DNA from: a virus
Length of the DNA stretch: 53,849 bases
Virus record (IMG/VR): IMGVR_UViG_3300047457_000833
Location: 1 to 53,849 of that record
Reading direction: 5' to 3' (one strand)
Shown: piece by piece, positions 32,573 through 53,174 of the stretch
Position numbering within the stretch: position 1 is the stretch's first letter
How the letters are laid out: the number at the start of each line of letters is the position of its first letter
The notes under the pieces: model-generated
The model's input: the letters and a program-made list of their open reading frames with translations, nothing else
Databases searched by the model: none
Told to the model about the DNA's origin: nothing
Program-made: the position numbers and the translations under genes

Positions 32573-33549
32573 AACTTCTCTTTGCCGATACCGAACTCGT
32601 CGGTGAACGCGTTCGCCACCTGCAACGCTTCCGAGATCGTCATGTCGACACGCACGACTTTGACGTTAAGGTCGCCCAGACCGTCCTTCGAGTCTGCGCC
32701 GACTGCGGCAGCCCAACGGTGATGGCCGTCAATCACATAATTGTCTTTTGACACGTAGATCGTGCCTGAGTCCCACTTCTTGGAGTCCATGATGCCTGCG
32801 ACCTTGTCGCTCTTCAGTTCGGCCTGCGACGCTTTGAGGCTGGCAGCAGGAACCTTTTCTTCGGTTACTTTCACGCCTTCGCCTTTGAGGAACTTGAGGA
32901 ACGCTGGCCCTGCGTCAACCTGACCCTTGTCGTCGGCGATCTTCGCCGCTTCGCTGCCTTCGCGTGCTGTTCCCGACAACTGTGGCATCTCAGCGCGAGG
33001 AAGTGGCTTGCCGTCCGCGTCGGCGAGTGACTGACCGCAGAACACGTTCGTGCCTTTCACTGACACGTTGCAAAGGTTGATGCGCACCTTCTCGCCGCGC
33101 TCCTTCGCTTCATTGACCATTTTGTGTAGTTCTTTGAGAAGCGTGTTCACTTGCTTCTCGTCCTCGAGTTCAACGACCTCACCCTTCGCCATCCGTTTGA
33201 TCGCCTCTTCGACCGTCTTGACGCGGATCGGCTCAGGCCGCTTCACAAGCATCGCCTTTGCTGATCGTTTGCCCGACTTCAAATCACGCACGATGCCCGA
33301 CGCCTGCGACTCGGTTCCAACACCTGAGGCGTCAACCCACTGATTCCCTCTAAATGGATGACCTTCGTAGTCGCCCTTGCGCAAGGCCTGCGCCTTCAAC
33401 ATCGCGGAAGCAAGCGCGCGGCGTGCTGAAACTGACGAACCCTCGACACCTTTGCGCTCGATCTCTTTGCGAACGATTCCCCATGTCGGGTCGTCAAGCG
33501 TCGAGTACGGTCGCAGCGAATCAACAATTCTTAGTTCGTGTTCAAACAC
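32569..33549 (-). CDS. Tagged ParB-like protein (reverse strand)
   Basis: A 326-residue protein read from GTG 33549. A helical, basic start (residues 1-57) leads to the cargo-tag module KGDYEGHPFRGNQW (residues about 58-71). A long Lys/Glu-rich middle follows. The last 90 residues form a ParB/sulfiredoxin-like domain with the nucleotide-site motif YVIDGHHRWAAA. It is the only tagged protein outside the portal-to-scaffold block. A -10-like TACACT lies seven bases before the start. It ends on the large terminase stop. Confidence 0.65.
   Translation of the reverse strand: MFEHELRIVDSLRPYSTLDDPTWGIVRKEIERKGVEGSSVSARRALASAMLKAQALRKGDYEGHPFRGNQWVDASGVGTESQASGIVRDLKSGKRSAKAMLVKRPEPIRVKTVEEAIKRMAKGEVVELEDEKQVNTLLKELHKMVNEAKERGEKVRINLCNVSVKGTNVFCGQSLADADGKPLPRAEMPQLSGTAREGSEAAKIADDKGQVDAGPAFLKFLKGEGVKVTEEKVPAASLKASQAELKSDKVAGIMDSKKWDSGTIYVSKDNYVIDGHHRWAAAVGADSKDGLGDLNVKVVRVDMTISEALQVANAFTDEFGIGKEKF
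33337..33378 (-). repeat. Cargo-tag module, copy in the ParB-like protein
   Basis: Reads KGDYEGHPFRGNQW followed by VDASG. It has Glu at the variable fifth position, shared with the copies at 42358 and 52236. Confidence 0.9.
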
Positions 33550-34621: not shown

Positions 34622-34671
34622 GCACCGAAAGACCGCGAAAAGACGCCATCTCACGGCACTCCTACCCTAAG

Positions 34672-36515: not shown

Positions 36516-37926
36516 AACAGACGGCTACGACTTTCAGGAGATCGGCTCCTCAGGACTCAAACGAGTCGCTGGTTTCATTGACGACGAAATCGTAAATTCG
36601 TTACGCGGCCTACAAGGCGCGAAAACCTATCGTGAGATGGCCGACAACGATCCCGTCATCGGCGCGATGCTTTACGCCATCGAGCGACTCATCATCCAAA
36701 TTGACTGGCGTGTCGAGCCATTCAGGGACGAAAACGACGAGACGACGAAGAAAGACGAAGAGATCGCCCAATTCGTTGAATCATGCCTGTACGACATGTC
36801 GGACTCATGGGAATCCACCCTCTCAAACCTCCTCACATTCCTCACCTACGGGTACGCATACTGCGAAATCGTCTACAAACGCCGCCTCGGACGCGACCAA
36901 GACGACCCGACGAAACGCTCCCAATTCGACGACGGACGGATCGGCTGGCGCAAGATCGCGCTCCGCGCCCAAGAAACCACATGGGAGTGGATGCTCGACG
37001 AAAAAGGCGGCATTCAAGGCCTCAAGCAGTTAGACCCATCAGTCGGGCCACTCGTAGAAATCCCCATTGAGAAGGCTCTGCTGTTCCGCGCCTCCACCGC
37101 CCGAAACAACCCCGAAGGACGCAGCATCCTCCGCAACGCATACCGCGCATGGCGATTCAAAAAGACCATCGAGGAAATCGAAGCCATCGGCATGGAACGC
37201 GACCTCGCAGGTATGCCCGTCGCCTATGTCCCTCCGTCAATGTTGTCGTCTGCCGCCACAAACGCCGAAGTTTCGGCCCGTTCCGCTATCGAGAACCTTG
37301 TGCGCGGCATCAAACGAAACGAGAACGAAGGAATCCTGTTCCCTCTCGCCTACGATTCCGAGGGCCGTCAAACCTACAAACTGGAACTGCTGAACGCTGG
37401 CGGCAACCGCCAATTCGACACCGACAAAATCATCACGCGCTACGACCAGCGCATCGCAATGACCGTGCTCGCCGACTTCATCCTGCTCGGCCACGCCAAC
37501 GTCGGATCGTTCGCGCTCGGCGCATCCAAAATCGATCTGTTCACGACCGCTATCGGCCAGATCGCACAGTCAATTGCTGAAACCTTCAACCAACACGCGC
37601 TCCCACGCCTCCTCAAACTGAACGGCATGGACACATCTCGAGCACCCGAACTGACGTTCGGCGAAATCACTCACGTCGACCTTGCACTGCTCGCCGACTT
37701 CATCCAGAAGGCGTCCGCAAGTGGCGCACTCATCATCGATCAGGGCATGGACGAGTACCTGCGCCTCATCTCGGGTCTCCCAGAGCGCGATCAAGAGTCT
37801 GCTGAAGGCGTGCCCCAAATGCCGAACAACGCCGCTTCTCAGCCACCTGCACCTCAACCTGCCGCCAAGCCAGAACCCAAACCTGAAGCCGATGCGCAGA
37901 CCGAAACACCGCCACAGCCGCAGTAA
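36508..37926 (+). CDS. Portal protein (Mu gp29/DUF935-like)
   Basis: A 472-residue protein. The start contains the portal-typical segment KTYREMADNDPVIGAMLYAI followed by ERLIIQIDWRVEPF. A long helical core includes YGYAYCEIVYKRR, and a VLADFILLGHANVGSFALG segment matches Mu-type portals. The C-terminus is a Pro/Gln/Glu-rich tail (about residues 440-472). It forms the dodecameric ring at the capsid vertex. MuF follows directly, as in Mu-like packaging modules. Confidence 0.82.
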   Translation: MAKTDGYDFQEIGSSGLKRVAGFIDDEIVNSLRGLQGAKTYREMADNDPVIGAMLYAIERLIIQIDWRVEPFRDENDETTKKDEEIAQFVESCLYDMSDSWESTLSNLLTFLTYGYAYCEIVYKRRLGRDQDDPTKRSQFDDGRIGWRKIALRAQETTWEWMLDEKGGIQGLKQLDPSVGPLVEIPIEKALLFRASTARNNPEGRSILRNAYRAWRFKKTIEEIEAIGMERDLAGMPVAYVPPSMLSSAATNAEVSARSAIENLVRGIKRNENEGILFPLAYDSEGRQTYKLELLNAGGNRQFDTDKIITRYDQRIAMTVLADFILLGHANVGSFALGASKIDLFTTAIGQIAQSIAETFNQHALPRLLKLNGMDTSRAPELTFGEITHVDLALLADFIQKASASGALIIDQGMDEYLRLISGLPERDQESAEGVPQMPNNAASQPPAPQPAAKPEPKPEADAQTETPPQPQ

Positions 37927-38881
37927 CCACAGGCATCAACGCCGACCAGTCGCCAAGCAAGACTTCCGCGACGGCGAATTCGCGTCAGACCTCGAAGCCA
38001 TCTTCGCGCGCGAACTGTTGAACGCCATCGCCAAACTGCGCCGATCCGTCACATCCGCAGAAGTTGAGGCGGCCATTCGCCGATCCGTCGCCGACGCCGT
38101 GCGCGCCCTCGACGCCGCGTTCTCCGAGGTTGATCTCACAAACATCGTGAACTCGATGACAAAAGAAATCATCCGAGCAGGCCTCGAGCAAACCCCAGAA
38201 CTCGCGGCTGGAGGCATCAACATCCGCTTCGATGTGTCCGACCCACGCGCCATCCAATGGGCACAGAACAGGGCAGGTCTGCTGATCCGCAACATCACAG
38301 ACGAAGTCCGTCTCAAAGTGAGCGACGTCACCCAACGCCTCCTCACAGGCGACATCTCGCTACGAGAAGCACGCAACGAGATTTCACGCACAGTCGGCCT
38401 CCACGACCGATGGCAGAAAGCCGTCGACAACTCCTACGAGAAAACCCTCGAGCAACTCCTCGAGGCTGGCATCGACATCGACGAAGCCGAAACACTCGCA
38501 CAGGAAGCCGCCGACAACTACGCGCAACGCCTGCTGAAAACCCGAGCATCAAACATCGCTCGAACCGAAATGTCGACTGCCATGAATCAAGGCCGCTACC
38601 TGCACTGGCAGCAACTCGCCGAAGCAGGCGTCATTGACTCCGTTCGCTCAGTAAAAGAGTGGAGAACCGCACCCGAGTTCGTGTCATCAAAGACCGATGT
38701 TTGCCCGATTTGTGAGCCAATGAACGGCATTCAGGCTCCGATGTGGGCAGAGTTCCCAGAGGTTGGTGTGGTGATGCCTCCAGCCCACCCGAACTGTCGC
38801 TGCCGAGCAGTTCTTATCGTGGAACCTATCGCAGATGTCATTGATTATGTGACGTCGATGCGCGAGCAACTTGGCTATTAG
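37892..38881 (+). CDS. MuF-type head morphogenesis protein
   Basis: A 329-residue protein. ATG 37892, overlapping the portal end by 35 bases, is the most plausible start. The first 20 residues are very basic (RRPKHRHSRSNHRHQRRPVA). The core has RASNIARTEMSTAMNQGRYL, then the Cys/His signature TDVCPICEPMNG and PPAHPNCRCRAV, which defines the MuF family. A few copies enter the prohead through the portal. MuF proteins often carry C-terminal toxins; this one has none, but the tagged effector genes follow it at once. Confidence 0.85.
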   Translation: MRRPKHRHSRSNHRHQRRPVAKQDFRDGEFASDLEAIFARELLNAIAKLRRSVTSAEVEAAIRRSVADAVRALDAAFSEVDLTNIVNSMTKEIIRAGLEQTPELAAGGINIRFDVSDPRAIQWAQNRAGLLIRNITDEVRLKVSDVTQRLLTGDISLREARNEISRTVGLHDRWQKAVDNSYEKTLEQLLEAGIDIDEAETLAQEAADNYAQRLLKTRASNIARTEMSTAMNQGRYLHWQQLAEAGVIDSVRSVKEWRTAPEFVSSKTDVCPICEPMNGIQAPMWAEFPEVGVVMPPAHPNCRCRAVLIVEPIADVIDYVTSMREQLGY

Positions 38882-39084: not shown

Positions 39085-42000
39085 GTGCCGTACCGCGTAG
39101 AACGCCGAGGGTCTTGCCCACCAGACCGCCCATTTGCAGTTGTTCTCGAGTCGTCAGGGGAGACGGTCGCCTGCCACGCGACACGCGCTGGTGCGGAGCG
39201 TCAAATCGCCGCCATCTACGCCTCTGAGCACGATTTGGAGAAGGAGCAGCCCACGTCGTCGGGTGTGCATGTTGACACGATCATGGGTGAGGAAGAAAAG
39301 CGTCGTCGCCTGCTGAAATTCGCGCCAGTGGCCGTGATCAAAGGAGACTATGTCGGTCATCCATTCAGAGGCAACCAATGGACGGACGCGTCTGGAGTCT
39401 CAAGGCAGCCAGCCGAATCTATGCGCGATATGAGTCGCGCAGGTCAATCATTGAACCCGACCGACGATCCTCTCGTTGCTGAAACAGAAGGCCGCCCGTT
39501 TGAGGGCTTCCTTGATTTGTCTCCAGAAACTCAAGCGATGCTTGATGCTCGCGATGCGTACTTCATTCGAGTGCGCGAAGTTCGTGACGAAGCGAAACGC
39601 ATCGTTGGTGAAAAAGAAGCAAAGGCATTCACAACCCCTGACGCACTGTTTGACGAGGCACAACGCATCGATCCGTCGTTCGCAGAGACACGGAAAGACG
39701 CGGTGTACACAGGCCCAAACGTCTACAAGATCGTTGACAAAATCAAAACCGATATGTTGCTCGCGTACGGAGCGAAACCGCTTCCTGAGGGCGAAACCGC
39801 GCCGACTCTCTATTATGCTGCTTTCACACGCGAAGAGTCGGGTCGCCTTACGTCCGAACAACGCACCATCGATCCTAAAGTAGACGTCACCCCGTTGCGC
39901 GAACGCGGTATGTCGGATCAACAAATAGGCGAACTGGTGCATGCCGTTGAAGTGAAAGCAAACCGTTTGCTTGACGGCCCCGAAGTCCGTTCCGCACAGT
40001 TCGGGCAGTCAGTTCCCGATCAGATCGCCGCAGAACGCAAATTGATCCCCGTGCTCGAGGAAGAACTCAAGAACGCTCGAGTGAGCGTCACAGTCACTCC
40101 ACGAATCCTGTCAAACATCCTCGCCGATGAACGGTTCAAGACGCAGTTTGAGACAGGGAAGTCAAGAGGATATAACTCAACGCAGGCCCGTCAAGACGAA
40201 GAACTAGCACGGTTCGGCTACCCCACACAGATGCCAGCCGACAAACGACCTGTTTACGGGATGATCGAGGTTGGTGGCCTGCGCACCCCGAGCGAACGCG
40301 GAAACCTCCAATATGGCAATGTGCTGGTGGTGCTGAAACCAGAAGTTGCCGACCGCACCACGTTCTCCGCAGATGATTCTCTCAGCAATTACCGTCCAAG
40401 CGCACCGCTTCGTGAACCGAATACGCGCGGCATTTTGTCGGCCTTCGTGGAGAACACTCACACGGCAGACGAGATTCGGTCAGGCGAAATGTATCTTGAG
40501 GCTCAAGTGCACGGTGGAGTCAAGTTGTCCGATATTGGGATGGTCATCTTCGAGTCTGGCGTCCAAATCGAGAACCGTAGCGGAGACAAAGTCAAGACGG
40601 CGACCGCGCCGAGCGCAGCCCTGCTGAAACGACTCGAGAAGGCTGGCATTCCGTACCAGATCGTGACGTCAGGCGCAGACATTAAGCCTGTCGAAAAAGC
40701 AGTCGGCTTTGACCCGACGCTACTCATCAAAGGCGATTATGTCGGCCACCCGTTTCGCGGCAACCAGTGGACAGACGCGTCAGGAGTGTCTCGTCGGCAA
40801 GCCATGTCGGGTGCTGATCGCTCGAGTGGTATCGCCAACTTGCAGGCTGTAGACACCGTTGAGGAGGCGCGTGCCACAGGCCGCCCACTCAAGATTCTGC
40901 AACCCGAGCACTATCCACCACAGGTCAAAGCAGCGTTAGCGGCCCATCGACAGGCCCAAGACGCGATCAACGCGCTACACGAAGAGATTGTAGGACAACC
41001 CGAAACCGAAGAAGCCACTAAACGCTTTTATGCTGATCGACGCGTACAAGTCGCGGAACTTGCACTTCAGTTAGCACTAGATGAAGCCAGAGTGCAACTC
41101 ACTACCGAACTTGCAAAGAAATATGGATTCACAGTTGAACAAAACCCAGAAGCACCCTATGAACGCATTCCATACGAGAACGTTTGGCGTGATCCCGATG
41201 GCCGTCTCAAGCGCGAAGAAGCATATTTTTACCCATCGAAGTTTGCGGAAGGATATCGCTGGACTGCCGCACCGTTAACACTGCTTAACCCAGATGGCTC
41301 TTACCGTCTTGTTTATCAGGGCGAAAACAAAGAACAAAAGTTGGGCTACGAATCGTTCTACGGGATTCCTATCGAGTCCTTGCGCACAGGGAAACCACCT
41401 TTTAGTTCATACGACGCTTCGGGCAATCCTGATCAACCACAACAAGACCAGAAGGCTGTTGATGCAGCGCGACAAATATTAATTAAAGAGGCCAAAGACC
41501 TCGGTATCGATTTGCCTGAAACCACTCAACCGCCACGCCTATCCGCCAAAAACCTTAAAGGAAGCCTGTCTGACGACGACATAGGTGTGCTTGGAAGCCA
41601 CATTTTCCAAACGGGTATGCGAGCGTTTCTTGGGGAAACTAAAGAAATCGATACGACGTTGTCTTGGACTGACCCAAAGGGCGACGTCACGGCGACCCTC
41701 ATTGCGAGGCAGGGCCGATTAGTGACAGACGACGCTCCGCTTTCGGTGACTGTTCCAGCGAACAAGGTTGGAGCGATTCTCAAGGATGGCCGCCTAAAAA
41801 GCCAGTTTGAGACAGGCAGATCGGGTGGCAAGAACGATCCCGAGATTCGTGCCGATTGGGAGGCCGCCATGTTCGGCTATCCGCGTGGCATGAATCCCGA
41901 GCAGAGGCCGATTTACGGGATGGTTGAAACAGGTGGCCCAAAGCCGTCCTCGACGCGAGGCAATGAGCAGTATGGCACGGTCACGCTTGTGCTGAAAGAT

Positions 42001-44754
42001 GACGTGAAGGATCGAGCGACCTTCACGAACGGCGACTCTCTTAACATGAACAGACAGTTTGTTCCAGTGCGTGACCCGTCAAGCCGTCTGGCCCAAGAAA
42101 GAGTGTCGGGTCGTATGGAGGTCGGAGATGACAACGACACCTACTACGAAACCCAGATTCACGGTGGAGTCAAAACATCCGACATCGCTAAAGTCATCAT
42201 CGACACACGAACCTACAAAGACTTCAAATGGATTAGCGTTCCTCCGTCTGCTGCGCTGCTGAAATCACTAGACAAGGCTGGCATCCCCTACGAGATCGTG
42301 GCAGGCAAGAACTTCCAAGACCCCGAAGCGCATAAAAGCGCGACACCCATCCTCGCCAAAGGCGACTATGAAGGCCACCCTTTCCGAGGTAACCAGTGGG
42401 TCGACGCGTCAGGCGCACGACCAGCATTCGCAATCCCCGACAACGGCGTTGATTTCAACCCGTACAGTGCTGAAGCCAAAGACTATTCGGAGATGGATCG
42501 CCGCAACGAACGCATCGAGTTCTCTGCGAACGCGTCCGTCGCCTTCGACGACGCGCGTCAAGCCGACCTGCTTCGTCTCAACGATCTGCGCGGAGTGGGC
42601 ATTATCGAGGTTCCTGCACCAGCCGACAAAACGAATCCGCGTCGCTACAGGCTTGTGGTGCGTCTCGGCGGCTACGACACAACCCTTGTTCTTGATTCCT
42701 TGAAGGAGCATCGCAACTTTGATGAGGCTTTGAAACGCAAGCCGAAGGTGCAGGAACTGCTCGAGGAATTCGTCAACAACCCAACACTCAAAGTTCGTGC
42801 CATCGACGCCGACGTGTGGGAGTACGAGTATGTCGCACAGTCAGGGCCGAACAAGGGTCGCACCATCACGAAGCGCACATCGTTCGTGAAACCGCAGTAT
42901 TCGCAGCAGCCCGATGTGGTTCTGAAGTCACTCAGCGTGACCAAAGGCGACTATGTGGGCCACCCGTTCAGGGGTAACCAGTGGATGGACGCCAACGGCG
43001 TGCCGCGTGGTGAAAGCAGGTCAGGAGAGTCAATCAAGATCGAGCGTCCCGAGATAGGCGACCTTGTGCTTGCTGCCGAACATGATGTCGGTCACACGGA
43101 CACGGTGGCCATGTTCCTCACCGACGACATCAGGCGACGCGACAACGCCCTAACCGAGTCACGCAATCAGGCTTTAGGTCTTGAGGGATTTCAGGGCGAA
43201 GGAACCTACGGCGCGTCGTTCTTTAAGCATCAGGTTGCTTTGGGTGTTGCTGAAACCCTGTCGTCAGTCCCGTTTGACGAATCCAAAACCGCCTTCACTG
43301 ACCTTATGGCGTTACAAGGCTATGAGGATGAGGCGCGCATCTTTACTGACGGTTTGCGCGGCTTGGTGAAAATTGATGATTCCGTGATTGTTAAGCCAGC
43401 CGAATACGAAGGCATGGTTTCAATCACGATCAACGGCGAGGAATCCCTTCACACCATTTCAGACCTCATCACAGACGGTGGAGCGATTCTTTCTCTGCCT
43501 AACCCAAATTCAAAGATTCGCGGCATCATTGGCTTTGACGAAAAAGCATTCAAGAATGTGCTGGAGGCGGAAGGTCTCAGCGTTTTATGGAACCTCGACT
43601 ACATCCCAGAATCCCCGAGAGAGCCTGATCCGCGACTCAAAGATAAACGAGAAGCGTGGCTACGCGCCTTCAAGGCGGGCCTCACAAGCCCAAACGCTGG
43701 CCAAGACATCGTTGTCGACGTGAGCGAATCGTTCCCAAGAATTGATGGTGGTCTAGAGATTCGGCGAGTGGAGGACGGTTTTAGGGAATTGTCACGCATC
43801 CCTCGGAATCGTGGCGAAAATATCAAGAGTCTTTATCTTGATCTAGGGAATCAAGCGTCTCGAGACCTTCAGACCCTCATCCCTAACGGCTTGGTCTTTG
43901 ACAAAGAAACGGTCGTCGGTTATGGGCTGGCGACGCAACTTGTCGGGAACTGGGCCAAAACTGCCAACGACTCGCACGTTGTAGCGCACCTAATTCAGGA
44001 CGTGGCCCGTCAAGAATTCGGTCTTGAACAAGCCACTGACTGGTCTACTAAAACGATGACCCTCACTGGTGAACCGCAAATTCAGGAACAAAGCCGCGCA
44101 CTGCTCAAACAGAACGGGCCGCTTGTCAAAACGATAGGGCTTGCACTGCGCTCGATGCATGACGCCACTCAACGCCATTTTGAGGCACAAGGAATCCAAT
44201 ACGTGCTGCTTTATCGTGGTGAAGGCGACACACCTGATTCCACAGAAAGCGATTCACTCACGACGCAAGTTAACCAATTGGGTAACATCGGGAAAGGCGT
44301 TACTTCTATCGCTACCACTCGCCCACTGTCGTCGTGGGCAGCGACCGTGTCGACTGCTGAACAGTTCTCCTATGGGTCGCGGAGCGCGATAGCGCGAGCC
44401 ATAGTACCCATCCAAGACATTCTGTCCATCCCATCTACAGGCTTCGGTTGCTTCGACGAGGATGAATTCGTGGTTCTCGGGCGGCCTCGCATGGTGGACG
44501 TGAACCTTGCCAGCACGATGGGTAGCCGTGCGTCTCTTGCAGTTGGTGGAGCACGACGCGTTCTTGACTTGGCAGAGAGCGTAGAGATGGCGTACCCGAG
44601 GGGATCTAATCGCGGTCGGGAGATGCGAGCATATTTTGAGATTCAACCAGTGAACACGGGCTACAAGGATGAAGCAGAGCGAGCGACGCAAGAAGCCCTT
44701 GACTCAGTCATCCGTCAACTTGAAGCCGATCCGAACACGATGATTCCAGCGTGA
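39085..44754 (+). CDS. Giant multi-domain tagged protein with ADP-ribosyltransferase-like end
   Basis: An 1889-residue protein from GTG 39085. Four tag modules (residues 86, 549, 1092 and 1287) divide it. Residues 1-50 hold a small phage N-domain (VERRGSCPPDRPFAVV, then CHATRAGAERQIAAIY). Segments 1 and 2 each end in a DUF3626-like domain (about 330-535 and 880-1085; YGM.E.GG ... EAQVHGG). Segment 3 is a short unknown domain. Segment 4 ends in an ADP-ribosyltransferase-like fold: Arg1711 in LLYRGEGD, Ser1749-Ser1750 in PLSSWAAT and Glu1792-x-Glu1794 in FDEDEFVVLG. This R-S-ExE set is the arginine-specific type. It looks like four fused cargo proteins delivered to the host; that role is inferred. 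Confidence 0.7.
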   Translation: MPYRVERRGSCPPDRPFAVVLESSGETVACHATRAGAERQIAAIYASEHDLEKEQPTSSGVHVDTIMGEEEKRRRLLKFAPVAVIKGDYVGHPFRGNQWTDASGVSRQPAESMRDMSRAGQSLNPTDDPLVAETEGRPFEGFLDLSPETQAMLDARDAYFIRVREVRDEAKRIVGEKEAKAFTTPDALFDEAQRIDPSFAETRKDAVYTGPNVYKIVDKIKTDMLLAYGAKPLPEGETAPTLYYAAFTREESGRLTSEQRTIDPKVDVTPLRERGMSDQQIGELVHAVEVKANRLLDGPEVRSAQFGQSVPDQIAAERKLIPVLEEELKNARVSVTVTPRILSNILADERFKTQFETGKSRGYNSTQARQDEELARFGYPTQMPADKRPVYGMIEVGGLRTPSERGNLQYGNVLVVLKPEVADRTTFSADDSLSNYRPSAPLREPNTRGILSAFVENTHTADEIRSGEMYLEAQVHGGVKLSDIGMVIFESGVQIENRSGDKVKTATAPSAALLKRLEKAGIPYQIVTSGADIKPVEKAVGFDPTLLIKGDYVGHPFRGNQWTDASGVSRRQAMSGADRSSGIANLQAVDTVEEARATGRPLKILQPEHYPPQVKAALAAHRQAQDAINALHEEIVGQPETEEATKRFYADRRVQVAELALQLALDEARVQLTTELAKKYGFTVEQNPEAPYERIPYENVWRDPDGRLKREEAYFYPSKFAEGYRWTAAPLTLLNPDGSYRLVYQGENKEQKLGYESFYGIPIESLRTGKPPFSSYDASGNPDQPQQDQKAVDAARQILIKEAKDLGIDLPETTQPPRLSAKNLKGSLSDDDIGVLGSHIFQTGMRAFLGETKEIDTTLSWTDPKGDVTATLIARQGRLVTDDAPLSVTVPANKVGAILKDGRLKSQFETGRSGGKNDPEIRADWEAAMFGYPRGMNPEQRPIYGMVETGGPKPSSTRGNEQYGTVTLVLKDDVKDRATFTNGDSLNMNRQFVPVRDPSSRLAQERVSGRMEVGDDNDTYYETQIHGGVKTSDIAKVIIDTRTYKDFKWISVPPSAALLKSLDKAGIPYEIVAGKNFQDPEAHKSATPILAKGDYEGHPFRGNQWVDASGARPAFAIPDNGVDFNPYSAEAKDYSEMDRRNERIEFSANASVAFDDARQADLLRLNDLRGVGIIEVPAPADKTNPRRYRLVVRLGGYDTTLVLDSLKEHRNFDEALKRKPKVQELLEEFVNNPTLKVRAIDADVWEYEYVAQSGPNKGRTITKRTSFVKPQYSQQPDVVLKSLSVTKGDYVGHPFRGNQWMDANGVPRGESRSGESIKIERPEIGDLVLAAEHDVGHTDTVAMFLTDDIRRRDNALTESRNQALGLEGFQGEGTYGASFFKHQVALGVAETLSSVPFDESKTAFTDLMALQGYEDEARIFTDGLRGLVKIDDSVIVKPAEYEGMVSITINGEESLHTISDLITDGGAILSLPNPNSKIRGIIGFDEKAFKNVLEAEGLSVLWNLDYIPESPREPDPRLKDKREAWLRAFKAGLTSPNAGQDIVVDVSESFPRIDGGLEIRRVEDGFRELSRIPRNRGENIKSLYLDLGNQASRDLQTLIPNGLVFDKETVVGYGLATQLVGNWAKTANDSHVVAHLIQDVARQEFGLEQATDWSTKTMTLTGEPQIQEQSRALLKQNGPLVKTIGLALRSMHDATQRHFEAQGIQYVLLYRGEGDTPDSTESDSLTTQVNQLGNIGKGVTSIATTRPLSSWAATVSTAEQFSYGSRSAIARAIVPIQDILSIPSTGFGCFDEDEFVVLGRPRMVDVNLASTMGSRASLAVGGARRVLDLAESVEMAYPRGSNRGREMRAYFEIQPVNTGYKDEAERATQEALDSVIRQLEADPNTMIPA
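39340..39381 (+). repeat. Cargo-tag module 1 of the giant protein
   Basis: Encodes KGDYVGHPFRGNQW then TDASG, at residues 86-99. It comes after the small N-terminal domain and before the first helical and DUF3626-like segment. Confidence 0.9.
40729..40770 (+). repeat. Cargo-tag module 2 of the giant protein
   Basis: Encodes the same peptide as module 1 but with many different third-codon bases, so it is conserved as protein. It marks the junction at residue 549, right after the first DUF3626-like domain. Confidence 0.9.
42358..42399 (+). repeat. Cargo-tag module 3 of the giant protein
   Basis: KGDYEGHPFRGNQW then VDASG at residue 1092. It follows the second DUF3626-like domain and precedes the short unknown domain. 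Confidence 0.9.
42943..42984 (+). repeat. Cargo-tag module 4 of the giant protein
   Basis: KGDYVGHPFRGNQW then MDANG at residue 1287. It opens the 600-residue segment that ends in the ADP-ribosyltransferase-like domain; the same MDANG ending is found at 45787. Confidence 0.9.
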
Positions 44755-44779: not shown

Positions 44780-45736
44780 GTGCTGAACCTTGATCCGACA
44801 CCGTTGGCAGCCGACTGGATGCGTGTCGTCGCGTTCAACGCAGAGTTCGGGCCAATCAACACGCTGGATGAATTTATCGACAAGATGGGGATCAGTCGCT
44901 CGTCGGCATTGCGTCCACAGTTAGCGCAGTACGCGTCGATGGCGTGGCTTCATTTGCTGCCGTACCCTGTGCAGCAGGCGATCAAGGAGGCGGCGAGAGT
45001 CTCGAAGGCTGTGCCGATGTTTGGGCCGTCCGTGCTGATCAAAGGCGATTATGTTGGCCACCCATTTAGAGGCAACCAATGGACAGATTCATCGGGTGTA
45101 AGCCGTAGCGGTCAGGGGTCTGGTGCGCGCCCGAGCGACAAAACGCTGCGCACCATCGCGTTTGAGATGGACTCAAAGATGGAAGTTCTAAAAGATGAAG
45201 GCGCGCGTCTCGTCAAGTTCGCTGGCGGCATCGAATTCGTAGACAGGCAGGCCTACATCGACCAACTTCCGCTTGTGTCGCGTGCAACACCGAATCATCA
45301 GGTGATCGCCAGTGGCGTGACAATGACAGAGGAAGCCCTGAATGACGAAGCCGATGTCGCTGTCATAGAGGATCGTGACGGACAGGTTTGTGGCGCAATT
45401 TCAATGAGCAGCAAGCCGTACACTTCTCAGGAGTTGTCGGAGTTTCTTGGTGGGGTCGACCCGAACTCAACTTGGATCGAGATGCGTAGCGCAGGCTCGA
45501 CAATGAAAGTTGATGGTGTCGGCTCGGGCTTGTTCGCGGCAGCGATTTCTAAGGCTGCCGAATCGGGGTCTGGCCTGTATTTGTCGCCGCTTGACGAGAG
45601 TGCCAGACAGTTCTGGGCTTCTAAAGGTTTCAGGGAGGCGGAACGCGTCGGTGGTAGCGAAGGCACCTACCAGTATCTGGACGCCGAATCGGTGCGAATC
45701 ATCGCCAACAACCTCGAGGAAGGGTGGGGCGCGTGA
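44780..45736 (+). CDS. Tagged GNAT acetyltransferase-like protein
   Basis: A 318-residue protein from GTG 44780. Residues 1-85 are a helical lead (WMRVVAFNAEFGPINTLDEF). The tag is at residues 88-101. The C-terminal half reads as a GNAT fold: an acidic strand AVIEDRDGQVCGAISM, the strand STWIEMRSAGS, then DGVGSGLFAAAISKA (Gly246-Gly250, acetyl-CoA loop) and SARQFWASKGFREAE (the usual final helix and strand). It could acetylate a host protein or small molecule. It overlaps the next gene by four bases (GTGA at 45733). Confidence 0.7.
   Translation: MLNLDPTPLAADWMRVVAFNAEFGPINTLDEFIDKMGISRSSALRPQLAQYASMAWLHLLPYPVQQAIKEAARVSKAVPMFGPSVLIKGDYVGHPFRGNQWTDSSGVSRSGQGSGARPSDKTLRTIAFEMDSKMEVLKDEGARLVKFAGGIEFVDRQAYIDQLPLVSRATPNHQVIASGVTMTEEALNDEADVAVIEDRDGQVCGAISMSSKPYTSQELSEFLGGVDPNSTWIEMRSAGSTMKVDGVGSGLFAAAISKAAESGSGLYLSPLDESARQFWASKGFREAERVGGSEGTYQYLDAESVRIIANNLEEGWGA
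45041..45082 (+). repeat. Cargo-tag module of the GNAT protein
   Basis: KGDYVGHPFRGNQW then TDSSG at residues 88-101, between the helical lead and the catalytic region. Confidence 0.9.
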
Positions 45737-47865
45737 TTCCAGCCTTCGATCTATTTGATGTCGCTTTAACGGACGAGGATGTGCTGAAAGGCGACTACGT
45801 AGGTCATCCGTTTAGGGGAAACCAGTGGATGGACGCGAACGGTGTCGCTCGAGGCGACGCAGGGTCATCTCCCGATCAAGACAAGCAGGCCTACGACCTG
45901 CGTCAACAGGGCAAATCTTGGGAAGAGATCGCCAAGATTCTCGGCTACGCGAACGGTGGCTCGGTGCGTCGTCTGGCGATGCGTCACGAGAAACGACTGA
46001 AGGACGGCGGTCAGGAAGTGGTGAAACCTGAACCCAAACCTGAGCCGAAGGTTAAGCCGCCGAAGGGTCGTGAACCTGAAAATTATGACGAGGCTGTTGC
46101 GCTGGCTAAATCGCTAATCAAGGCCACGTTCAACGGTGACGCCATCGCCACGCTCACTAAATTGATGGCGGATTCAGGGAAAACCTTTGATCCGAACGAT
46201 GAGGCATACAAACTGACTGATGCCGAACGCGTAATGGAGGAGAAGGTTCTAATGGTCGGGGACGCTGTGCGGATGGCGTTGGCGTTCGCTCAAGCCCAAG
46301 CAAGTGGCCTCGACCCGAAGGAAGCGGCGCGTGTCCGAGAGGAGCATGACGCGCTTAAGAATGCGTGGCAGAAACTAGTAGACGCCCGTGCGGAAGCAGA
46401 AAAAACCGCGCTGGCGGATGCCAGAAAAGCATTGACTGGATCAAAACAAGGTGCATCTTGGAATCCAACTTTCACAGTTAGCAGTTTCGCGGATCAGATA
46501 GCCGCTGCGAGAGCACTAGCCGAGCGTGACGGTCTGCTGAAACCAGACGAATCAATCCAATACATCGGTGGGAGCGTGGCGTTAGGTTTTGCTGGAGCAA
46601 AAGCATCAACAGAACTGCAAACCCTTGTGGATCAGTTAAAAGCCGACGAACCCACTGCCGATGTTAGAACTCGCGGCAAAGATCTATTCGTGCCAGTAGA
46701 CCCTCGCAGCACTACCGCGAGCCTTGTGCGCGCCGTGTACGACGCCAACAAAGACGCATTGCAGTTGATTGAGGCACTCTCGAGCGAAGTCACCGCAGGC
46801 AGAAAAACCGTTGCCGAGGTGAAACAAATCTTGTCCTCGCCCACAGCCATTGTTGACCAGATGAACCGCACCTATGTGCTTCCAGAAAACAAAGGGGAAC
46901 GAACCGACAACGATTACCGTGACACCCATGCAGGTTGGAGTGGTCGTCAAGTGTCGCTGCTGAAACCAGAAACACGACAAGAAATGCTCGTCGCCGCAGT
47001 CCAGAAAGCGGCCCAAAGTTCCAACATTGTCGACTCCATCGGTGCGGTAATGAGCCGACCGATTGGTGATCTCGTCGGCGTCAACATAGGAAAACTTGAC
47101 CCGACGATGACCTATCGGCAGGTTCAGGAACGTCAAATTGAAATCAACACTAAAATTAGAGAACAAAACGAAAAGCAAGAAGCAAGCGGAATCTCTCGCG
47201 GAACTGTCGTTAGACGCGTCCTTGAAGATGTCGGTGTCAAAATGGCCTCTCCTGACCTGTTGCGTGTCAACTTTGATCCGAAGCGCAAGGATGCTGCGGA
47301 ATTGACTGCGGCGGCACGCGAAATCTCGATGATGCTCCCTCGAGCGTTCGTGCTTGGTTCTGATTCGCTCAAACCTCAGTTCTCTGGCGGTGGCCACATG
47401 ACGGCGGAACTCAAGTTCGGTGGCGGTCGCGCCCACGCCCAGAATCTGATGGGTGGCAAATTCATCATCAAACATGAAACCATTCCTACAAACTCGGCCA
47501 GAGGCCTTACTTCGTGGAAGTCGGTGTTTCTTCACGAGACGGTGCACGGAATGGAGTACGCAAATCCCCTAATCCGCTACCTCGAATACTTGACTTGGAC
47601 TCGGCGTGGCGAAGGCGAGCCTTTGCGAACACTAAAATCGATCACAGGCGCGTCGGGGTATCAGTCTTACGAAAAGGGCAAGAAGGATGCGTGGGGAAAC
47701 GCTTACGCTGGCAAAGAATACGGTAAAAGCGGAACGTCAACGTATGAGATCATGACCACAGGAATGCAAAGCCTCTATTTTGGGGATGAGCGCGCCGACC
47801 GCGAGCATTTGAATGCGGTGCTCGGAATTTTGGCGGCGGCAAGCACACTGGCAGGCAACAAATGA
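45733..47865 (+). CDS. Tagged HTH-metallopeptidase protein
   Basis: A 710-residue protein from GTG 45733 (GTG 45724 would add three residues). The tag is at residues 19-32. It is followed at about 55-90 by the recurring HTH (GKSWEEIAKILGYANGGSVR, then RLAMRHEKRL) and a Pro/Lys linker. A long helical middle with Ala-rich coiled coils runs to about 420. The C-terminal domain is a zincin: SVFLHETVHGMEY with HETVH at residues 601-605 and a downstream STYEIMTTG whose Glu672 could be the third ligand. It may bind DNA and cut a host protein after injection; this is inferred. Confidence 0.7.
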   Translation: MIPAFDLFDVALTDEDVLKGDYVGHPFRGNQWMDANGVARGDAGSSPDQDKQAYDLRQQGKSWEEIAKILGYANGGSVRRLAMRHEKRLKDGGQEVVKPEPKPEPKVKPPKGREPENYDEAVALAKSLIKATFNGDAIATLTKLMADSGKTFDPNDEAYKLTDAERVMEEKVLMVGDAVRMALAFAQAQASGLDPKEAARVREEHDALKNAWQKLVDARAEAEKTALADARKALTGSKQGASWNPTFTVSSFADQIAAARALAERDGLLKPDESIQYIGGSVALGFAGAKASTELQTLVDQLKADEPTADVRTRGKDLFVPVDPRSTTASLVRAVYDANKDALQLIEALSSEVTAGRKTVAEVKQILSSPTAIVDQMNRTYVLPENKGERTDNDYRDTHAGWSGRQVSLLKPETRQEMLVAAVQKAAQSSNIVDSIGAVMSRPIGDLVGVNIGKLDPTMTYRQVQERQIEINTKIREQNEKQEASGISRGTVVRRVLEDVGVKMASPDLLRVNFDPKRKDAAELTAAAREISMMLPRAFVLGSDSLKPQFSGGGHMTAELKFGGGRAHAQNLMGGKFIIKHETIPTNSARGLTSWKSVFLHETVHGMEYANPLIRYLEYLTWTRRGEGEPLRTLKSITGASGYQSYEKGKKDAWGNAYAGKEYGKSGTSTYEIMTTGMQSLYFGDERADREHLNAVLGILAAASTLAGNK
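45787..45828 (+). repeat. Cargo-tag module of the HTH-metallopeptidase
   Basis: KGDYVGHPFRGNQW then MDANG, very near the N-terminus (residues 19-32). This is the shortest lead of any copy, so the lead is not needed. Confidence 0.9.
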
Positions 47866-48191: not shown

Positions 48192-48197
48192 GTGACC

Positions 48198-49718
48198 ATG
48201 ATTTCTGTCGGAGACATCCTCGAGCGTCCACGCAAATCAGGCGGTGTTGAGCGCGCTCTGGTTGAGAAGGTGCGCACGTCAGGCAACGTGCTGATCAACG
48301 GCTCGCAGGTAGCCGCAACCTCCGAGAACCCTGTGGTCACAGCCAGAATCGTGGTACTGGACGGCGAGTCGGTGCTCAAGACTCGAGCCACACGCACTTT
48401 CGTGCACAAAATGCACGGCGACGACCATGAGATGGGCGTTTATACGCTTGTTCCGCGCCAGAAGGCGATGTACGAGATGTATGAGGCCATCGTCGGGCAG
48501 ATGGGCCAGTTTGATAAAAGTGTTGGTGGGAATGGTGCTCACTACGCGGACGGCACGGAGAACGTGTTCCTGTCGGAGGGGATGCAGTGCGCTAACTGCG
48601 TGTTTTACTGCGGTGGCCGAGCCTGCGAAGTTGTTGCTGGAGACATCGACCCGTTGGGCATCTGCAAACTGTGGATCATCGCTGAGCCTCTTCTCGGCCA
48701 GCAGGCTACGCCTGTGCTGATCTCTGAGCGCGAACTAGGGATTGAGAAGGCATCAAACTTCACTCCACCGCAAGCGGTGCGTGACGCCGCGCAACGGGCC
48801 GTCAAATGGATCGAGGAAGGGAAGGCTGGCGACGGCTTCACGGCGGTCGGTGCAGGCCGTGCGCGCGATCTCGCAGCAGGACGGGCAGTGTCGCTCGAGA
48901 CCGTCAAGCGGATCTCCAACTTCCTGTCGCGCCACGAAGTTGACAAGAAGGCCGAAGGCTTCAGTCAAGGGGAGAACGGCTACCCCTCGGCAGGTCGTGT
49001 CGCTTGGGATGCATGGGGAGGTGATCCTGCGAAGAGTTGGGTGAGTGGAATCCTTGCCGATGTCCAAAAGGCCGCCAAACTGAAGGAAGGCCAGTTCGTT
49101 CGCTGGAACTCGTCAGGTGGCCCTGCGCAAGGCCGCATCGAGCACGTGATGGAAGAAGGCACGCTCGGCGTCCCGAACTCAAGGTTCAAGATTAACGCGC
49201 AGCCCGACGACCCTGCGGTGCTGATCCGCATCTATCAAGAGGGTGCGGACGGATGGGTGGAAACCCCAACCCTTGTCGGTCACAAGGCGTCGACGCTTCG
49301 TCGTATCGAGCCTCTGTCAAAAGCGACACGCCTCATCAAGCAGGCCACCGAGGAACGCTTCACTCTAGCCCCTTGGTATATTCCAGAAAAATATGATGCG
49401 CAGAACGAGTGGACGGACGCGCGCGAACTTCAGAAAGCGTTGTGGGAATACGTTCAGTCTGGTGATCGCACCATCCGTTTGCAGCACAACAAGAATGTGC
49501 GCGCTGGCGAATGGGTGGAAGCAATGACGTTGCCGCACTCGTGGACGACCCCGATGACGAAAGCCAACGGCGCAACCACCGAGATCACATACCCTGCTGG
49601 AACCGTGCTTCTGGGCGTCATCTGGGACGACTGGGCGTGGGACATGGTCAAGAAAGGCGAGATCACGGGCTTCTCCATCGGTGGCTCAGCGGAACGCCTC
49701 GACCTCGAAATGCCCTAA
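48198..49718 (+). CDS. Prohead protease (XkdF-like) with Cys cluster and Tudor-like domain
   Basis: A 506-residue protein from ATG 48198 (GTG 48192 is two codons upstream). In order: a beta-rich start; a Cys cluster at residues 131, 134, 138, 143 and 156 (MQCANCVFYC ... GICKLW), which may bind Fe-S or zinc; a helical region (200-285) with GYPSAGRVAWDAWGGD; a DUF2945/Tudor-like barrel (about 293-371, FVRWNSSGGPAQGRIEHVME); and the XkdF/S78-like protease region (about 385-506) ending KGEITGFSIGGSAERL. It is expected to cleave the scaffold and perhaps the tagged cargo inside the prohead. The extra domains are unusual. Confidence 0.7.
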   Translation: MISVGDILERPRKSGGVERALVEKVRTSGNVLINGSQVAATSENPVVTARIVVLDGESVLKTRATRTFVHKMHGDDHEMGVYTLVPRQKAMYEMYEAIVGQMGQFDKSVGGNGAHYADGTENVFLSEGMQCANCVFYCGGRACEVVAGDIDPLGICKLWIIAEPLLGQQATPVLISERELGIEKASNFTPPQAVRDAAQRAVKWIEEGKAGDGFTAVGAGRARDLAAGRAVSLETVKRISNFLSRHEVDKKAEGFSQGENGYPSAGRVAWDAWGGDPAKSWVSGILADVQKAAKLKEGQFVRWNSSGGPAQGRIEHVMEEGTLGVPNSRFKINAQPDDPAVLIRIYQEGADGWVETPTLVGHKASTLRRIEPLSKATRLIKQATEERFTLAPWYIPEKYDAQNEWTDARELQKALWEYVQSGDRTIRLQHNKNVRAGEWVEAMTLPHSWTTPMTKANGATTEITYPAGTVLLGVIWDDWAWDMVKKGEITGFSIGGSAERLDLEMP

Positions 49719-50857: not shown

Positions 50858-52024
50858 ATGGCGACTGAGATGAACCAAGACGCGATCTACAAGATGTTTG
50901 CGGCGTCCCCTGTCGGGAAGTCGATGTCGGCTGCTGATCTTGACGCGATGCGTCAAATGCTCGAGACGACCCCTGTCACACAGATCGGTGGCTGGTACGG
51001 GGAGCAGATTCGCAAGGCTGCCCGTCTCGCCAAAGGCGATTACGTTGGGCATCCGTTCCGAGGCAACCAATACACCGACGCATCAGGCGTGGGACGAGGC
51101 TCCTCAAGTGGGCCTTCCAGCCGTCGCAGCACCGCCGAGATTGACGCCATCAACGAGCGTCTGGCACGCACAGGCGACAAGCAGTTGATGATGGACGGGC
51201 TTCTCAGCAGTGCTCGAGCAGACGTTGACGCAGCGATGCGTGCAGGGAAAAACAACGTACCGTTGATTGACGGTCTTGCGCTGCTGGAAACCGCGAACCG
51301 TGCAGGCGTTAACACTCCAGAAGGCAAGCAGGCACTTCAACGCGCCTTCGACTGGCTCGAGAACGAGAACTATCACGGGCTTGCTGAAGGCGTCCATAAC
51401 ATCATGCAGGCCAGAGGCCCGAAGAACGGCTACATGGAATTTGAGCGGGATGCAAAAGACTTCGTGTCGTCGCAGATCGCGGAGACCGCACTCTTCGCGG
51501 AAACCGACCTGAAACGACAGATGGACGGCATCGACGGAATCATCGAGACATCAAAAGGCGCAATCGACAACGCCGACGTCAAAGCCGAAAGAAGCGAGAA
51601 TTTTGAGAGCGAGGACGCCGCGAAAGATCGCAAGGACGCATCCGATGTGACTCGCGCTGAGACGCGACTCCAACGGCACGCGAAGGAAGTCAAATCAGTC
51701 TTGGAATCCCTGATCGTATACAGTCGGAATGGGCGCACCGATTCAAACGCTGGTGATATCGAGCGCGCCTACAAGAACCTGTTCAGTAAGGCCTCTCAAC
51801 TTCAGATGCTTCGCTCTGAGATCATGCGCGATAGCGAATTTGAGCGCACCGCAAGCCGTCAAGGTTTTGCTGGCGGCAAGAGCGTCACTGGCAAGTACGG
51901 TTTGCTTCTCGGCAGCATTCGGCAGGCATTAGAGGCGATCAACGAAGTCCAGTCTGAGGTTGATAGTTCCAGCGAATCGATCCGTCAATCCGCCGAACAA
52001 ATGTACGCAGACTCGAAGGGATAA
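50858..52024 (+). CDS. Tagged coiled-coil protein
   Basis: A 388-residue protein from ATG 50858. A helical lead (DAIYKMFAASPVGKSMSAAD) precedes the tag at residues 59-72, which has Tyr in place of the usual Trp. The remaining 300 residues are almost wholly helical with heptad-like repeats (TETALFAETDLKRQMDGID, EVKSVLESLIVY). No enzymatic motif is visible. It may be an internal head protein or a scaffold-type cargo. Confidence 0.6.
   Translation: MATEMNQDAIYKMFAASPVGKSMSAADLDAMRQMLETTPVTQIGGWYGEQIRKAARLAKGDYVGHPFRGNQYTDASGVGRGSSSGPSSRRSTAEIDAINERLARTGDKQLMMDGLLSSARADVDAAMRAGKNNVPLIDGLALLETANRAGVNTPEGKQALQRAFDWLENENYHGLAEGVHNIMQARGPKNGYMEFERDAKDFVSSQIAETALFAETDLKRQMDGIDGIIETSKGAIDNADVKAERSENFESEDAAKDRKDASDVTRAETRLQRHAKEVKSVLESLIVYSRNGRTDSNAGDIERAYKNLFSKASQLQMLRSEIMRDSEFERTASRQGFAGGKSVTGKYGLLLGSIRQALEAINEVQSEVDSSSESIRQSAEQMYADSKG
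51032..51073 (+). repeat. Cargo-tag module of the first coiled-coil protein
   Basis: KGDYVGHPFRGNQY then TDASG. It is the only copy ending in Tyr, so the last position tolerates an aromatic exchange. Confidence 0.9.
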
Positions 52025-52028
52025 TAAA

Positions 52029-53174
52029 GTGGCCGAAGTTCGCAAGTGTTCATGTGGTGAAGGTAACCAGCAGGTGCTCGACACGCTGCGCTCCACCACG
52101 CTGGCCGAGATGCCTGTGGACGAATTCAACGAGATCGTCGACGACGTCAACAAGGCTGGCGGCATCCGCAACCTGTCAGGTTTGTCTCGGGTGCTGATCG
52201 AGAAGGCGTTGAACGATTTGCGTGCAGGTGTAGAGAAGGGCGACTACGAAGGTCATCCATTCCGAGGAAATCAGTGGACTGATTCGTCAGGTACTGGACG
52301 TGGCGGCGCAGGCGGTGGGCCAAAAGGTTCTAAGAATCAACGGGCTAGATATTTTGACAGTGCACCTGACCGCCCACAGACCGCTGGTGCTAGATATTTT
52401 GACAGTGCGCCCGACCGCCCACAGGCCGCTGGTGCTAAATATATCGACATGAAAGGGAATTCTCCTCGTCGCGCTGAGAGTGTGCAACAGGAACTGAATC
52501 GCCTGTCTAGAGAAGGCCTACAAAGTCAAATCGATGAACTGAAGATGTATATCGATGACCATAAGGGAATGGCTGAAGTTCTACGCGACCTCGGCAACGA
52601 GGATGGCGCACGACAAGCAGAAGCCAACGCTGCGAAAGCAGAGAAAGAGGTGCGCGGCCTAAAAGCGGAGATCGACAGGCGTCAAAAGCGATTCGAAATG
52701 GATCAAAAAACGGAGTCCGCTAAGACAAAAGTCACCGAGGACAACATTGATTCCAAATTGAAAGGCGATGACCTAAAGCAGTTCAAAGCGCAGGTCAAGG
52801 AAGCCGAGACTGCTGTCAAAGAATTCCGTAAAACTGTCGCAGATATACAAAAGCGCGTGGCCGCCGAAGGAGTTCGTGGCGTTGCTTCTATTCTTAAAGA
52901 AGCACTCAATGAGGCTCGGACGTTTGAGAAGTTGGTGCGCGACGCCAAAGCAGCACCAACCATTCGTCAAGCGGTACGAATGACGTCGTTAGGAACAAAT
53001 GCTGGCGAAAACGCTAAGGGTGCGCTTCGAGAGGTTTTGGGGAAACTAAAGGGCGGCGAAAGCGATGCTGATACAGAAGCAATAAATGCTCTGCAAACTG
53101 CTGGCGACAAATATTTTGGTCTTTCGCCAGACCGATACAACCTTGATGATGCCTTTGATTTCATTGATAGTTGA
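52029..53174 (+). CDS. Tagged coiled-coil protein with peptide repeats
   Basis: A 381-residue protein from GTG 52029. It begins with a Cys pair (KCSCGEGNQ), then a helical lead of the same type as in the previous tagged gene. The tag lies at residues 70-83. A 15-residue peptide unit (ARYFDSAPDRPQTAG) is then repeated twice with a partial third copy. The rest is a long charged coiled coil (QIDELKMYIDDHKGMAEVLR and similar). No enzyme motif is visible. It directly precedes the scaffold gene. Confidence 0.6.
   Translation: MAEVRKCSCGEGNQQVLDTLRSTTLAEMPVDEFNEIVDDVNKAGGIRNLSGLSRVLIEKALNDLRAGVEKGDYEGHPFRGNQWTDSSGTGRGGAGGGPKGSKNQRARYFDSAPDRPQTAGARYFDSAPDRPQAAGAKYIDMKGNSPRRAESVQQELNRLSREGLQSQIDELKMYIDDHKGMAEVLRDLGNEDGARQAEANAAKAEKEVRGLKAEIDRRQKRFEMDQKTESAKTKVTEDNIDSKLKGDDLKQFKAQVKEAETAVKEFRKTVADIQKRVAAEGVRGVASILKEALNEARTFEKLVRDAKAAPTIRQAVRMTSLGTNAGENAKGALREVLGKLKGGESDADTEAINALQTAGDKYFGLSPDRYNLDDAFDFIDS
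52236..52277 (+). repeat. Cargo-tag module of the second coiled-coil protein
   Basis: KGDYEGHPFRGNQW then TDSSG at residues 70-83, the last copy before the scaffold gene. Confidence 0.9.
52344..52451 (+). repeat. 45-bp in-frame tandem repeat
   Basis: Two units of 45 bp (52344-52388 and 52389-52433) differ at four positions, and a decayed third copy starts at 52434. They encode 15-residue units. The DNA similarity is high, so the duplication is recent compared with the tag modules. Confidence 0.75.

What the first reader, a model, noticed from the sequence alone, without database searches (positions are those of the whole stretch)
39085..44754. An 1889-residue protein that looks like four tagged cargo proteins fused end to end
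Four tag modules divide the chain into segments of about 463, 543, 195 and 603 residues, each shaped like the separate tagged proteins downstream. This suggests growth by in-frame fusion, and processing back into separate parts after or during packaging.
Basis: partly seen in the sequence, partly recalled or inferred. Interest (0 to 1): 0.78.

Follow-up and report, generated by a model that had tools for sequence, protein, structure and literature searches.

The report
Phage effector polyprotein with swappable tags
A phage makes one very long protein by stringing together several separate effector enzymes (probably three ADP-ribosyltransferases), each introduced by the same short tag, and related phages show these tagged pieces as separate genes, in other orders, and even with a different tag swapped in, which points to a modular cargo-loading system.

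Summary
In detail: the 1889-residue ORF carries four near-identical tags (KGDYxGHPFRGNQW) at residues 86, 549, 1092 and 1287; five more tags lie on other genes.

The fusion reading is strongly supported. In related phages, between the same head genes, the window's segments occur as separate tagged genes or fused in other orders, and the window's separate GNAT gene is a fused last segment in two relatives.

Segments 1 and 2 are DUF3626 domains; the segment-2 model matches SopF (Z 11.9) and DarT (Z 9.4). Segment 4 ends in a predicted ADP-ribosyltransferase. Segment 3 is unidentified. All four tags are predicted disordered.

Closely related polyproteins of over 2000 residues show a clean tag swap and a whole-cassette swap, with breakpoints at the tags. 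The window's tags stay alike although their silent sites are near saturation, so selection acts on the peptide, probably for recognition by a phage-encoded partner.

Closest known kind: polyvalent proteins. Not shown: packaging, injection, or processing back into parts. Verdict: real, a new variant of a known kind, with an apparently undescribed tag system.

The parts
39085..44754 (+). 1889-aa tagged effector polyprotein
   Evidence: Single uninterrupted ORF; four tags
39085..39339 (+). N-terminal 85 residues (leader)
   Evidence: 59-64% identical in L134 and L138 at the same position after MuF
39340..39405 (+). tag 1, KGDYVGHPFRGNQWTDASGVSR
39406..40728 (+). segment 1 body; DUF3626 domain at about residues 330-527 (40072-40665)
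   Evidence: PF12294, two stretches, E 7.6e-23; 46% identical to segment 2; full-length relatives L134 (38%) and L132 (35%)
40729..40794 (+). tag 2, identical peptide to tag 1
40795..42357 (+). segment 2 body; DUF3626 ART-fold domain at about residues 883-1072 (41731-42300)
   Evidence: Foldseek to SopF E 4.4e-6; VIA Z 11.9 SopF, 9.4 DarT
42358..42417 (+). tag 3, KGDYEGHPFRGNQWVDASGA
42418..42942 (+). segment 3 body, small alpha/beta domain of unknown function
   Evidence: 46% identical to a segment in a different gene of L110; model low confidence
42943..43008 (+). tag 4, KGDYVGHPFRGNQWMDANGVPR
43009..44751 (+). segment 4 body; C-terminal ART at about residues 1593-1802 (43861-44490): R1711, SS near 1749, E1792-x-E1794
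   Evidence: 55 ORFs with relatives; R, G and ExE nearly invariant in 47 sequences; 16 of 47 hit PF07357 DRAT; ART chains fill the best fold matches, Z up to 5.8
44780..45736 (+). separate tagged gene with GNAT-like domain (tag 45041-45106)
   Evidence: Fused as last segment of multi-tag ORFs in L134 (41%) and L132 (40%); weak Acetyltransf_1 hit
45724..47865 (+). separate tagged gene, 713 aa, HETVH zincin-like C-terminus (tag 45787-45852)
   Evidence: Homologous to the fused third segment of an ORF in L132; split into two genes in L099
50843..52024 (+). separate tagged gene (tag 51032-51097; start codon uncertain)
51960..53174 (+). separate tagged gene (tag 52236-52301; start codon uncertain)
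32569..33549 (-). separate tagged ParB-like gene next to the large terminase (tag 33316-33378)
   Evidence: 64% identical in L128 beside terL; homologous to fused segments in L041 and L080
36508..37926 (+). portal gene (context)
   Evidence: PF06074 E 1.1e-35
37922..38881 (+). MuF head morphogenesis gene (context)
   Evidence: PF04233 E 1e-9
48192..49718 (+). XkdF-like peptidase gene (context)
   Evidence: PF14550 E 6e-13

Best explanation
The 1889-residue protein is a head-associated effector polyprotein of the polyvalent kind. It was built by joining tag-led effector cassettes end to end: an N-terminal leader, then tag plus ART (DUF3626/SopF-like), tag plus ART (same family, old duplicate), tag plus a small unknown domain, and tag plus a DRAT-like ART. 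Each tag is a short, disordered, phage-specific recognition peptide that starts a cassette. Shown by sequence: the modular build; exchange of cassettes between fused and separate genes; swap of tag families under the same cargo; selection on the tag peptide. Inferred from context: the tags are read by a phage head component, so the chain is loaded into the prohead and ejected with the DNA, where the ARTs modify host targets. Open: whether the chain is cut at the tags.
For: Segments 2 and 3, adjacent in the window, lie in two adjacent genes in L110; segments 1 and 2 lie in different genes in L132; the order is reversed and the GNAT fused on in L134; a seg4-type ART is a free-standing tagged gene in L099, L128 and L132; all lie directly downstream of the MuF gene, and upstream of the XkdF gene where the contig reaches it. 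The same ART and DUF3626 domains sit behind four tag families. In L165/L179/L187/L223 a cassette 89-91% identical has tag T1 in one and T4 in three, and cassette 3 is replaced in L179 between flanks 96-97% identical, with nucleotide breakpoints at the tags. Tags vary less within a locus than between loci (48% vs 35% identity, permutation maximum 38%); the window, L099 and L227 have 74-77% peptide identity with silent sites only 33-39% identical. Tags predicted disordered. Segment-2 domain matches SopF and DarT folds. Tagged segments elsewhere include ART-PolyVal, ADPrib_exo_Tox, PARP, Zeta toxin, GNAT, HipA-like kinase, ParB, Topo IB, MuF and prohead protease families. T1 is nearly confined to viral contigs: over 100 stretches against 5 in 257 Gb of bacterial and archaeal genomes.
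Against: No direct evidence of packaging, injection or enzymatic activity. Some tags end short ORFs (L014, L033), so a tag does not always lead a cargo. A MuF protein already bound for the head carries a tag too (L127), which a pure loading signal would not need. The nearest isolated phages (Kovu, Salgado) lack the tagged block, so it is dispensable at that locus. The seg3-seg4 model is mostly low confidence (mean pLDDT 58.5) and its fold matches are modest. Low pLDDT with 13-47 sequences is weak evidence of disorder.
Confidence: 0.62

Rival explanations
1. The tags are recognition sites of a phage protease (XkdF-type peptidase or the zincin in gene 45724). The polyprotein is cut at each tag into separate effectors before or during packaging, as proposed for phage P1 DdrB. 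This can coexist with a loading role.
For: Tags lie at segment boundaries and start every cassette; a MuF-tag-cargo fusion exists (L127); an XkdF-type peptidase and a zincin-like protein are encoded nearby (HETVH seen); P1 DarA and DdrB are processed and DdrB is packaged as a fragment (PMC5512222); within-phage tag homogeneity fits any dedicated reader.
Against: The scaffold-like protein in the window and the capsid protein in L072, the usual substrates of a maturation protease, carry no tag. Four chemically different tag families would need different proteases, yet three families share one chain in L187. The conserved core is about 14 residues, long for a cleavage site. Large N4 virion RNA polymerase is packaged uncut (PMC5512222).
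Confidence: 0.3
2. The tags are passive: flexible linkers or recombination joints that let cassettes be exchanged, with no recognition function.
For: Predicted disordered, followed by Gly/Ser-rich stretches; breakpoints of cassette exchange fall at tags.
Against: A passive linker needs no invariant 14-residue core. Silent sites are near saturation while the peptide is kept, and tags match within a phage more than between phages. Tags also sit near residue 31 of single-domain proteins, where there is nothing to link.
Confidence: 0.1
3. One large enzyme in which the repeated motif is a buried structural element of a single compact fold.
For: A single ORF of 1889 residues.
Against: Tags have pLDDT 25-34 and lie outside the folded domains; segments exist alone and in other orders in relatives.
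Confidence: 0.02

Closest known systems
Polyvalent proteins of phages and conjugative elements (Iyer et al. 2017, PMC5512222)
   Same: Large multidomain phage proteins encoded near head genes; ART, GNAT, ParB and metallopeptidase domains; predicted to be packaged and injected; accretion from solo proteins, with peptidase processing proposed.
   Different: That paper does not describe tags between the domains ('linker' 0 and 'short motif' 0 occurrences). Here a repeated tag delimits every cassette and several tag families are exchangeable. In this ORF the three identified domains are all ARTs, not disparate activities.
Phage T4 Alt (packaged, injected ADP-ribosyltransferase)
   Same: Predicted role: an ART delivered with the phage DNA (from PMC5512222).
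   Different: Alt is not known to me to have tag repeats; packaging is known for Alt and untested here.
MuF toxins / MuF-ART fusions (PMC5576092; Mycobacterium phage Tierra gp9)
   Same: Effectors tied to head morphogenesis genes; Tierra gp9 joins a DUF3626-like domain to a protein annotated 'capsid maturation protease and ADP-ribosyltransferase'.
   Different: In the window MuF is a separate untagged gene and the effectors are in a tag-delimited chain. The MuF toxin paper describes temperate phages and holds neither 'motif' nor 'linker'.
SopF / DUF3626 family
   Same: Segments 1 and 2 match PF12294; the segment-2 model has the SopF fold with Z 11.9. SopF is described as containing DUF3626 (PMC6682159).
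   Different: Phage-encoded repeated domains with tags; about 17% identity; target unknown and presumably bacterial.
Phage P1 DarA/DdrB
   Same: Head-packaged early-infection proteins processed by proteolysis (PMC5512222); model for the processing step.
   Different: No tag repeats known to me; processing not shown here.

Membership tests
Polyvalent proteins | 2-15 domains in one polypeptide | tested here: met
   Four tag-delimited segments; two DUF3626 domains, one ART, one unknown
[quoted passage not shown]
   All three identified domains in this ORF are ARTs and segment 3 is unknown; relatives at the same locus fuse ART with GNAT (L134) or with zincin-like and ParB-like segments (L132)
Polyvalent proteins | Phage type encoded among head and packaging genes | tested here: met
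   Between MuF (37922-38881) and XkdF (48192-49718), after portal
Polyvalent proteins | Known polyvalent domain families (such as ART-PolyVal PF18760) | tested here: inconclusive
   PF18760 not found in this ORF but found in tagged segments of L026
Polyvalent proteins | Packaged in the virion and injected | not testable with these tools
   Needs virion proteomics
ADP-ribosyltransferase superfamily, segments 1-2 (DUF3626/SopF type) | Family profile match | tested here: met
   PF12294 81.4 bits against cut-off 27, two stretches
ADP-ribosyltransferase superfamily, segments 1-2 (DUF3626/SopF type) | ART fold | tested here: met
   Segment 2: SopF Z 11.9 (rmsd 4.2, 188 aligned), DarT Z 9.4; Foldseek E 4.4e-6. 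Segment 1 by 46% identity to segment 2
ADP-ribosyltransferase superfamily, segments 1-2 (DUF3626/SopF type) | NAD-dependent transferase activity | not testable with these tools
   Conserved Arg and YxExQ residues only
ADP-ribosyltransferase superfamily, segment 4 | R-S-ExE type active-site motif | tested here: met
   R and G of the RG motif and both Glu of ExE are at least 90% conserved in 47 sequences; Ser of RPLSSW is the consensus
ADP-ribosyltransferase superfamily, segment 4 | ART fold | tested here: inconclusive
   ART chains at Z 5.0-5.8 lead the list but all are under 8; Foldseek on PDB had no match below 0.001
ADP-ribosyltransferase superfamily, segment 4 | Family profile match (DRAT PF07357) | tested here: inconclusive
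   16 of 47 relatives match, best E 1.7e-7; the window sequence itself does not
MuF toxins | N-terminal MuF domain in the same chain | tested here: not met
   MuF is a separate gene (37922-38881); no PF04233 in the 1889-aa ORF

The most novel reading that the evidence does not exclude
Tailed phages use a code of short, mutually exchangeable peptide tags (at least four families) as addresses for loading effectors into the head. Any protein that acquires a tag becomes cargo, cassettes are traded between phages at tag boundaries, and polyproteins are chains of addressed cargoes read by a phage-specific receptor.
Probability: 0.35. Interest if true: 0.88.

Novelty: new variant of a known kind. Interest (0 to 1): 0.75.

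Why it matters
How phages choose which effector proteins enter the head with the DNA is largely open outside a few models such as T4 and P1. A short peptide that marks about 195 different cargo clusters, is kept by selection, and can be replaced by an unrelated tag without changing the cargo would be a portable address or processing signal. That makes the selection rule directly testable, gives a sequence handle for finding hundreds of unknown early effectors, and explains how multi-effector chains grow and recombine.

Tried and rejected
Single-sequence searches with the whole protein and with segment 4 found no viral relatives by exact peptide words; tag-pattern scans and alignment queries worked instead. 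Recent DNA duplication as the reason for identical tags was rejected by silent sites; one other locus, L237, does look recently duplicated, with 71% silent identity. A buried-core role for the tags was rejected. A 98% 'T1/T3 swap' in the automatic list turned out on inspection to be gain or loss of a 300-residue cassette with its own tag, so it is not counted as a swap. Tags were not found in named phages by tblastn beyond a weak hit in Xanthomonas phage Rb1; BLAST masks such short Gly-rich queries, so absence is not shown. No paper on phages in the held library prints any of the tag strings; this is weak evidence of novelty, because papers rarely print such strings and preprints are not held. 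Foldseek of the seg3-seg4 model against the PDB gave no significant match, and segment 3 remains without a fold assignment. N-terminal part of segment 4: no relatives found.

Full report
WHAT IS THERE. The window is an IMG/VR virus record of 53,849 bases. ORF 39085-44754 encodes 1889 residues without interruption. The motif KGDYxGHPFRGNQW starts at residues 86, 549, 1092 and 1287, cutting the chain into 463, 543, 195 and 603 residues after an 85-residue N-terminus, exactly as reported. Five other genes carry one such tag each: 44780-45736, 45724-47865, about 50843-52024, 51960-53174, and 32569-33549 on the other strand next to the terminase. The ORF follows portal and MuF genes and precedes an XkdF-like peptidase gene.

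NOT CHANCE, NOT RECENT COPIES. Shuffled ORFs give no tag-1 matches against 451 observed in the fetched ORFs. Among the window's nine tags, fourfold-degenerate sites agree in 36% of cases against 29% expected from codon usage: the DNA has drifted close to saturation while the peptide has stayed. From 312 tags, nearly all from other phages, the profile is [VIL]xKGDxxGHPFRGNQ[YW]TxGxGG, with sharp edges and Gly/Ser-rich sequence behind it (G, F, G, N and Q, with H or N, were fixed by the search pattern, the other positions were free or partly free). The median position of the first tag is residue 31.

WHAT THE SEGMENTS ARE. Segments 1 and 2 end in DUF3626 domains, 46% identical to each other. The AlphaFold model of segment 2 matches SopF (Foldseek E 4.4e-6; Z 11.9 over 188 residues) and DarT (Z 9.4), both ADP-ribosyltransferases (their activity is established knowledge); a profile search also reached the SopF chain weakly (E 0.0046), and SopF is described as containing DUF3626 (PMC6682159). 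Segment 4 ends in a domain with 64 matches in 55 ORFs, a conserved RG, SS and ExE pattern, DRAT matches in 16 of 47 relatives and ART chains as the best fold matches, at modest Z of 5.0-5.8. So the chain most likely carries three ARTs. Segment 3 is unidentified.

THE TAGS ARE JOINTS. In both models the tags have pLDDT about 25-34 and lie outside the folded domains (residues 10-31 and 553-574, tags 2 and 3; residues 8-27 and 203-224, tags 3 and 4; tag 1 was not in a model).

FUSION TEST. Splitting 239 tag-bearing ORFs at their tags and comparing the pieces, then mapping the loci, gave this picture downstream of the same MuF gene. Window: [NT-seg1-seg2-seg3-seg4] [GNAT] [g45724]. L134: [NT-seg2-seg1-GNAT] [g45724, partial]. 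L132: [seg4] [seg1-GNAT] [seg2-middle segment-g45724]. L110: [seg2-x] [seg3-y] [g45724]. L099: [?] [GNAT] [seg4] [g45724 N-part] [g45724 C-part]. L128: [seg4] and a further tagged gene. Segments thus exist alone, fused, and in different orders, each starting with a tag. The cultured relatives nearest by portal, Arthrobacter phages Kovu and Salgado, have MuF close to the XkdF-position gene with no tagged block. This supports growth by accretion of tagged cassettes.

BEYOND THE FINDING: TAG FAMILIES. Relatives of the seg4 ART and of DUF3626 also sit behind other short tags: HDQKTHG (up to four in a chain), HPRDExGRF and GPGSGNFGHAGRPG. Four 2000-2250-residue chains from related phages (L165, L179, L187, L223) carry seven tags of three families interleaved. 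The seventh cargo is 89-91% identical in all four, yet L165 has the GHPFRGNQ tag where the others have the GPGSGNFGHAGRPG tag. The third cargo of L179 is unrelated to that of the others, while its flanks are 96-97% identical. Nucleotide alignments place both changes at the tags. At lower identity, 73% identical ART segments stand behind HDQKTHG in L222 and GHPFRGNQ in L141. So tags of different families can replace each other under the same cargo. The 510 tag-led segments fall into 195 clusters, including ART, PARP, Zeta toxin, GNAT, HipA-like kinase, ParB, topoisomerase IB, MuF and prohead protease families.

WHY A READER OF THE TAG IS LIKELY. At positions not fixed by the search pattern, tags within a locus agree in 48% against 35% between loci (permutation maximum 38%). 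In the window, L099 and L227 they agree in 74-77% while silent sites agree in only 33-39%. Peptides kept alike within a phage but drifting between phages suggest a partner encoded by the same phage: a head component that loads cargo, a protease, or both. Tags on MuF and prohead protease proteins and the near-absence of tag 1 from bacterial genomes (5 matches in 257 Gb) fit a role inside the particle. This last step is inference.

COMPARISON. The closest known kind is the polyvalent protein (PMC5512222): predicted packaged and injected multidomain phage effectors that grow from solo proteins. A word search of that paper finds no tag between domains. The present chain meets the multidomain and head-gene-context criteria, is inconclusive on disparate activities because the known domains are all ARTs, and packaging is untested. 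It is not a MuF toxin, because MuF is a separate gene.

JUDGEMENT. Fusion: strongly supported. Cargo: likely. Processing: open. New: interchangeable tag families that delimit and carry effectors.

Noticed in passing
window 45724-47865 and 33882-34649 (-): A helix-turn-helix-like stretch (SWEEIAKILGYANGGSVRRLAMRHE) directly behind the tag in gene 45724 recurs behind a tag in L132 and in the untagged minus-strand gene at 33882-34649.
   Followed up: no
L014, L033: Short ORFs (51, 123 and 179 aa) end with a tag instead of starting with one, so the tag can also be C-terminal.
   Followed up: partly
L127:1144-3510: A MuF protein carries a GHPFRGNQ tag at residue 321 followed by about 470 residues of further sequence.
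   Followed up: partly
L214:11597-12835: A prohead serine protease (PF04586, E 3e-10) stands behind an HDQKTHG tag.
   Followed up: partly
L012:15025 (Xanthomonas phage Rb1): A protein annotated 'internal head protein' in an isolated phage contains DGDFSGHPFRGNQH; its neighbour is annotated as an M12B metallopeptidase.
   Followed up: no
L009 (Actinomycetia phage DSL-LC01) 11524-24025: A DUF3626 protein and a 3289-residue protein both carry an MQRRDRxGKF/GRF-type tag behind the portal gene.
   Followed up: partly
L237: Among the tag-rich loci listed, the only one with high silent-site identity (71%), suggesting recent duplication of tagged cassettes there.
   Followed up: no
L178 / L026 (contig 3300045974_000513): A 1929-residue ORF with seven tags and a 792-residue ORF with three tags; the latter carries ART-PolyVal matches in two stretches.
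   Followed up: partly
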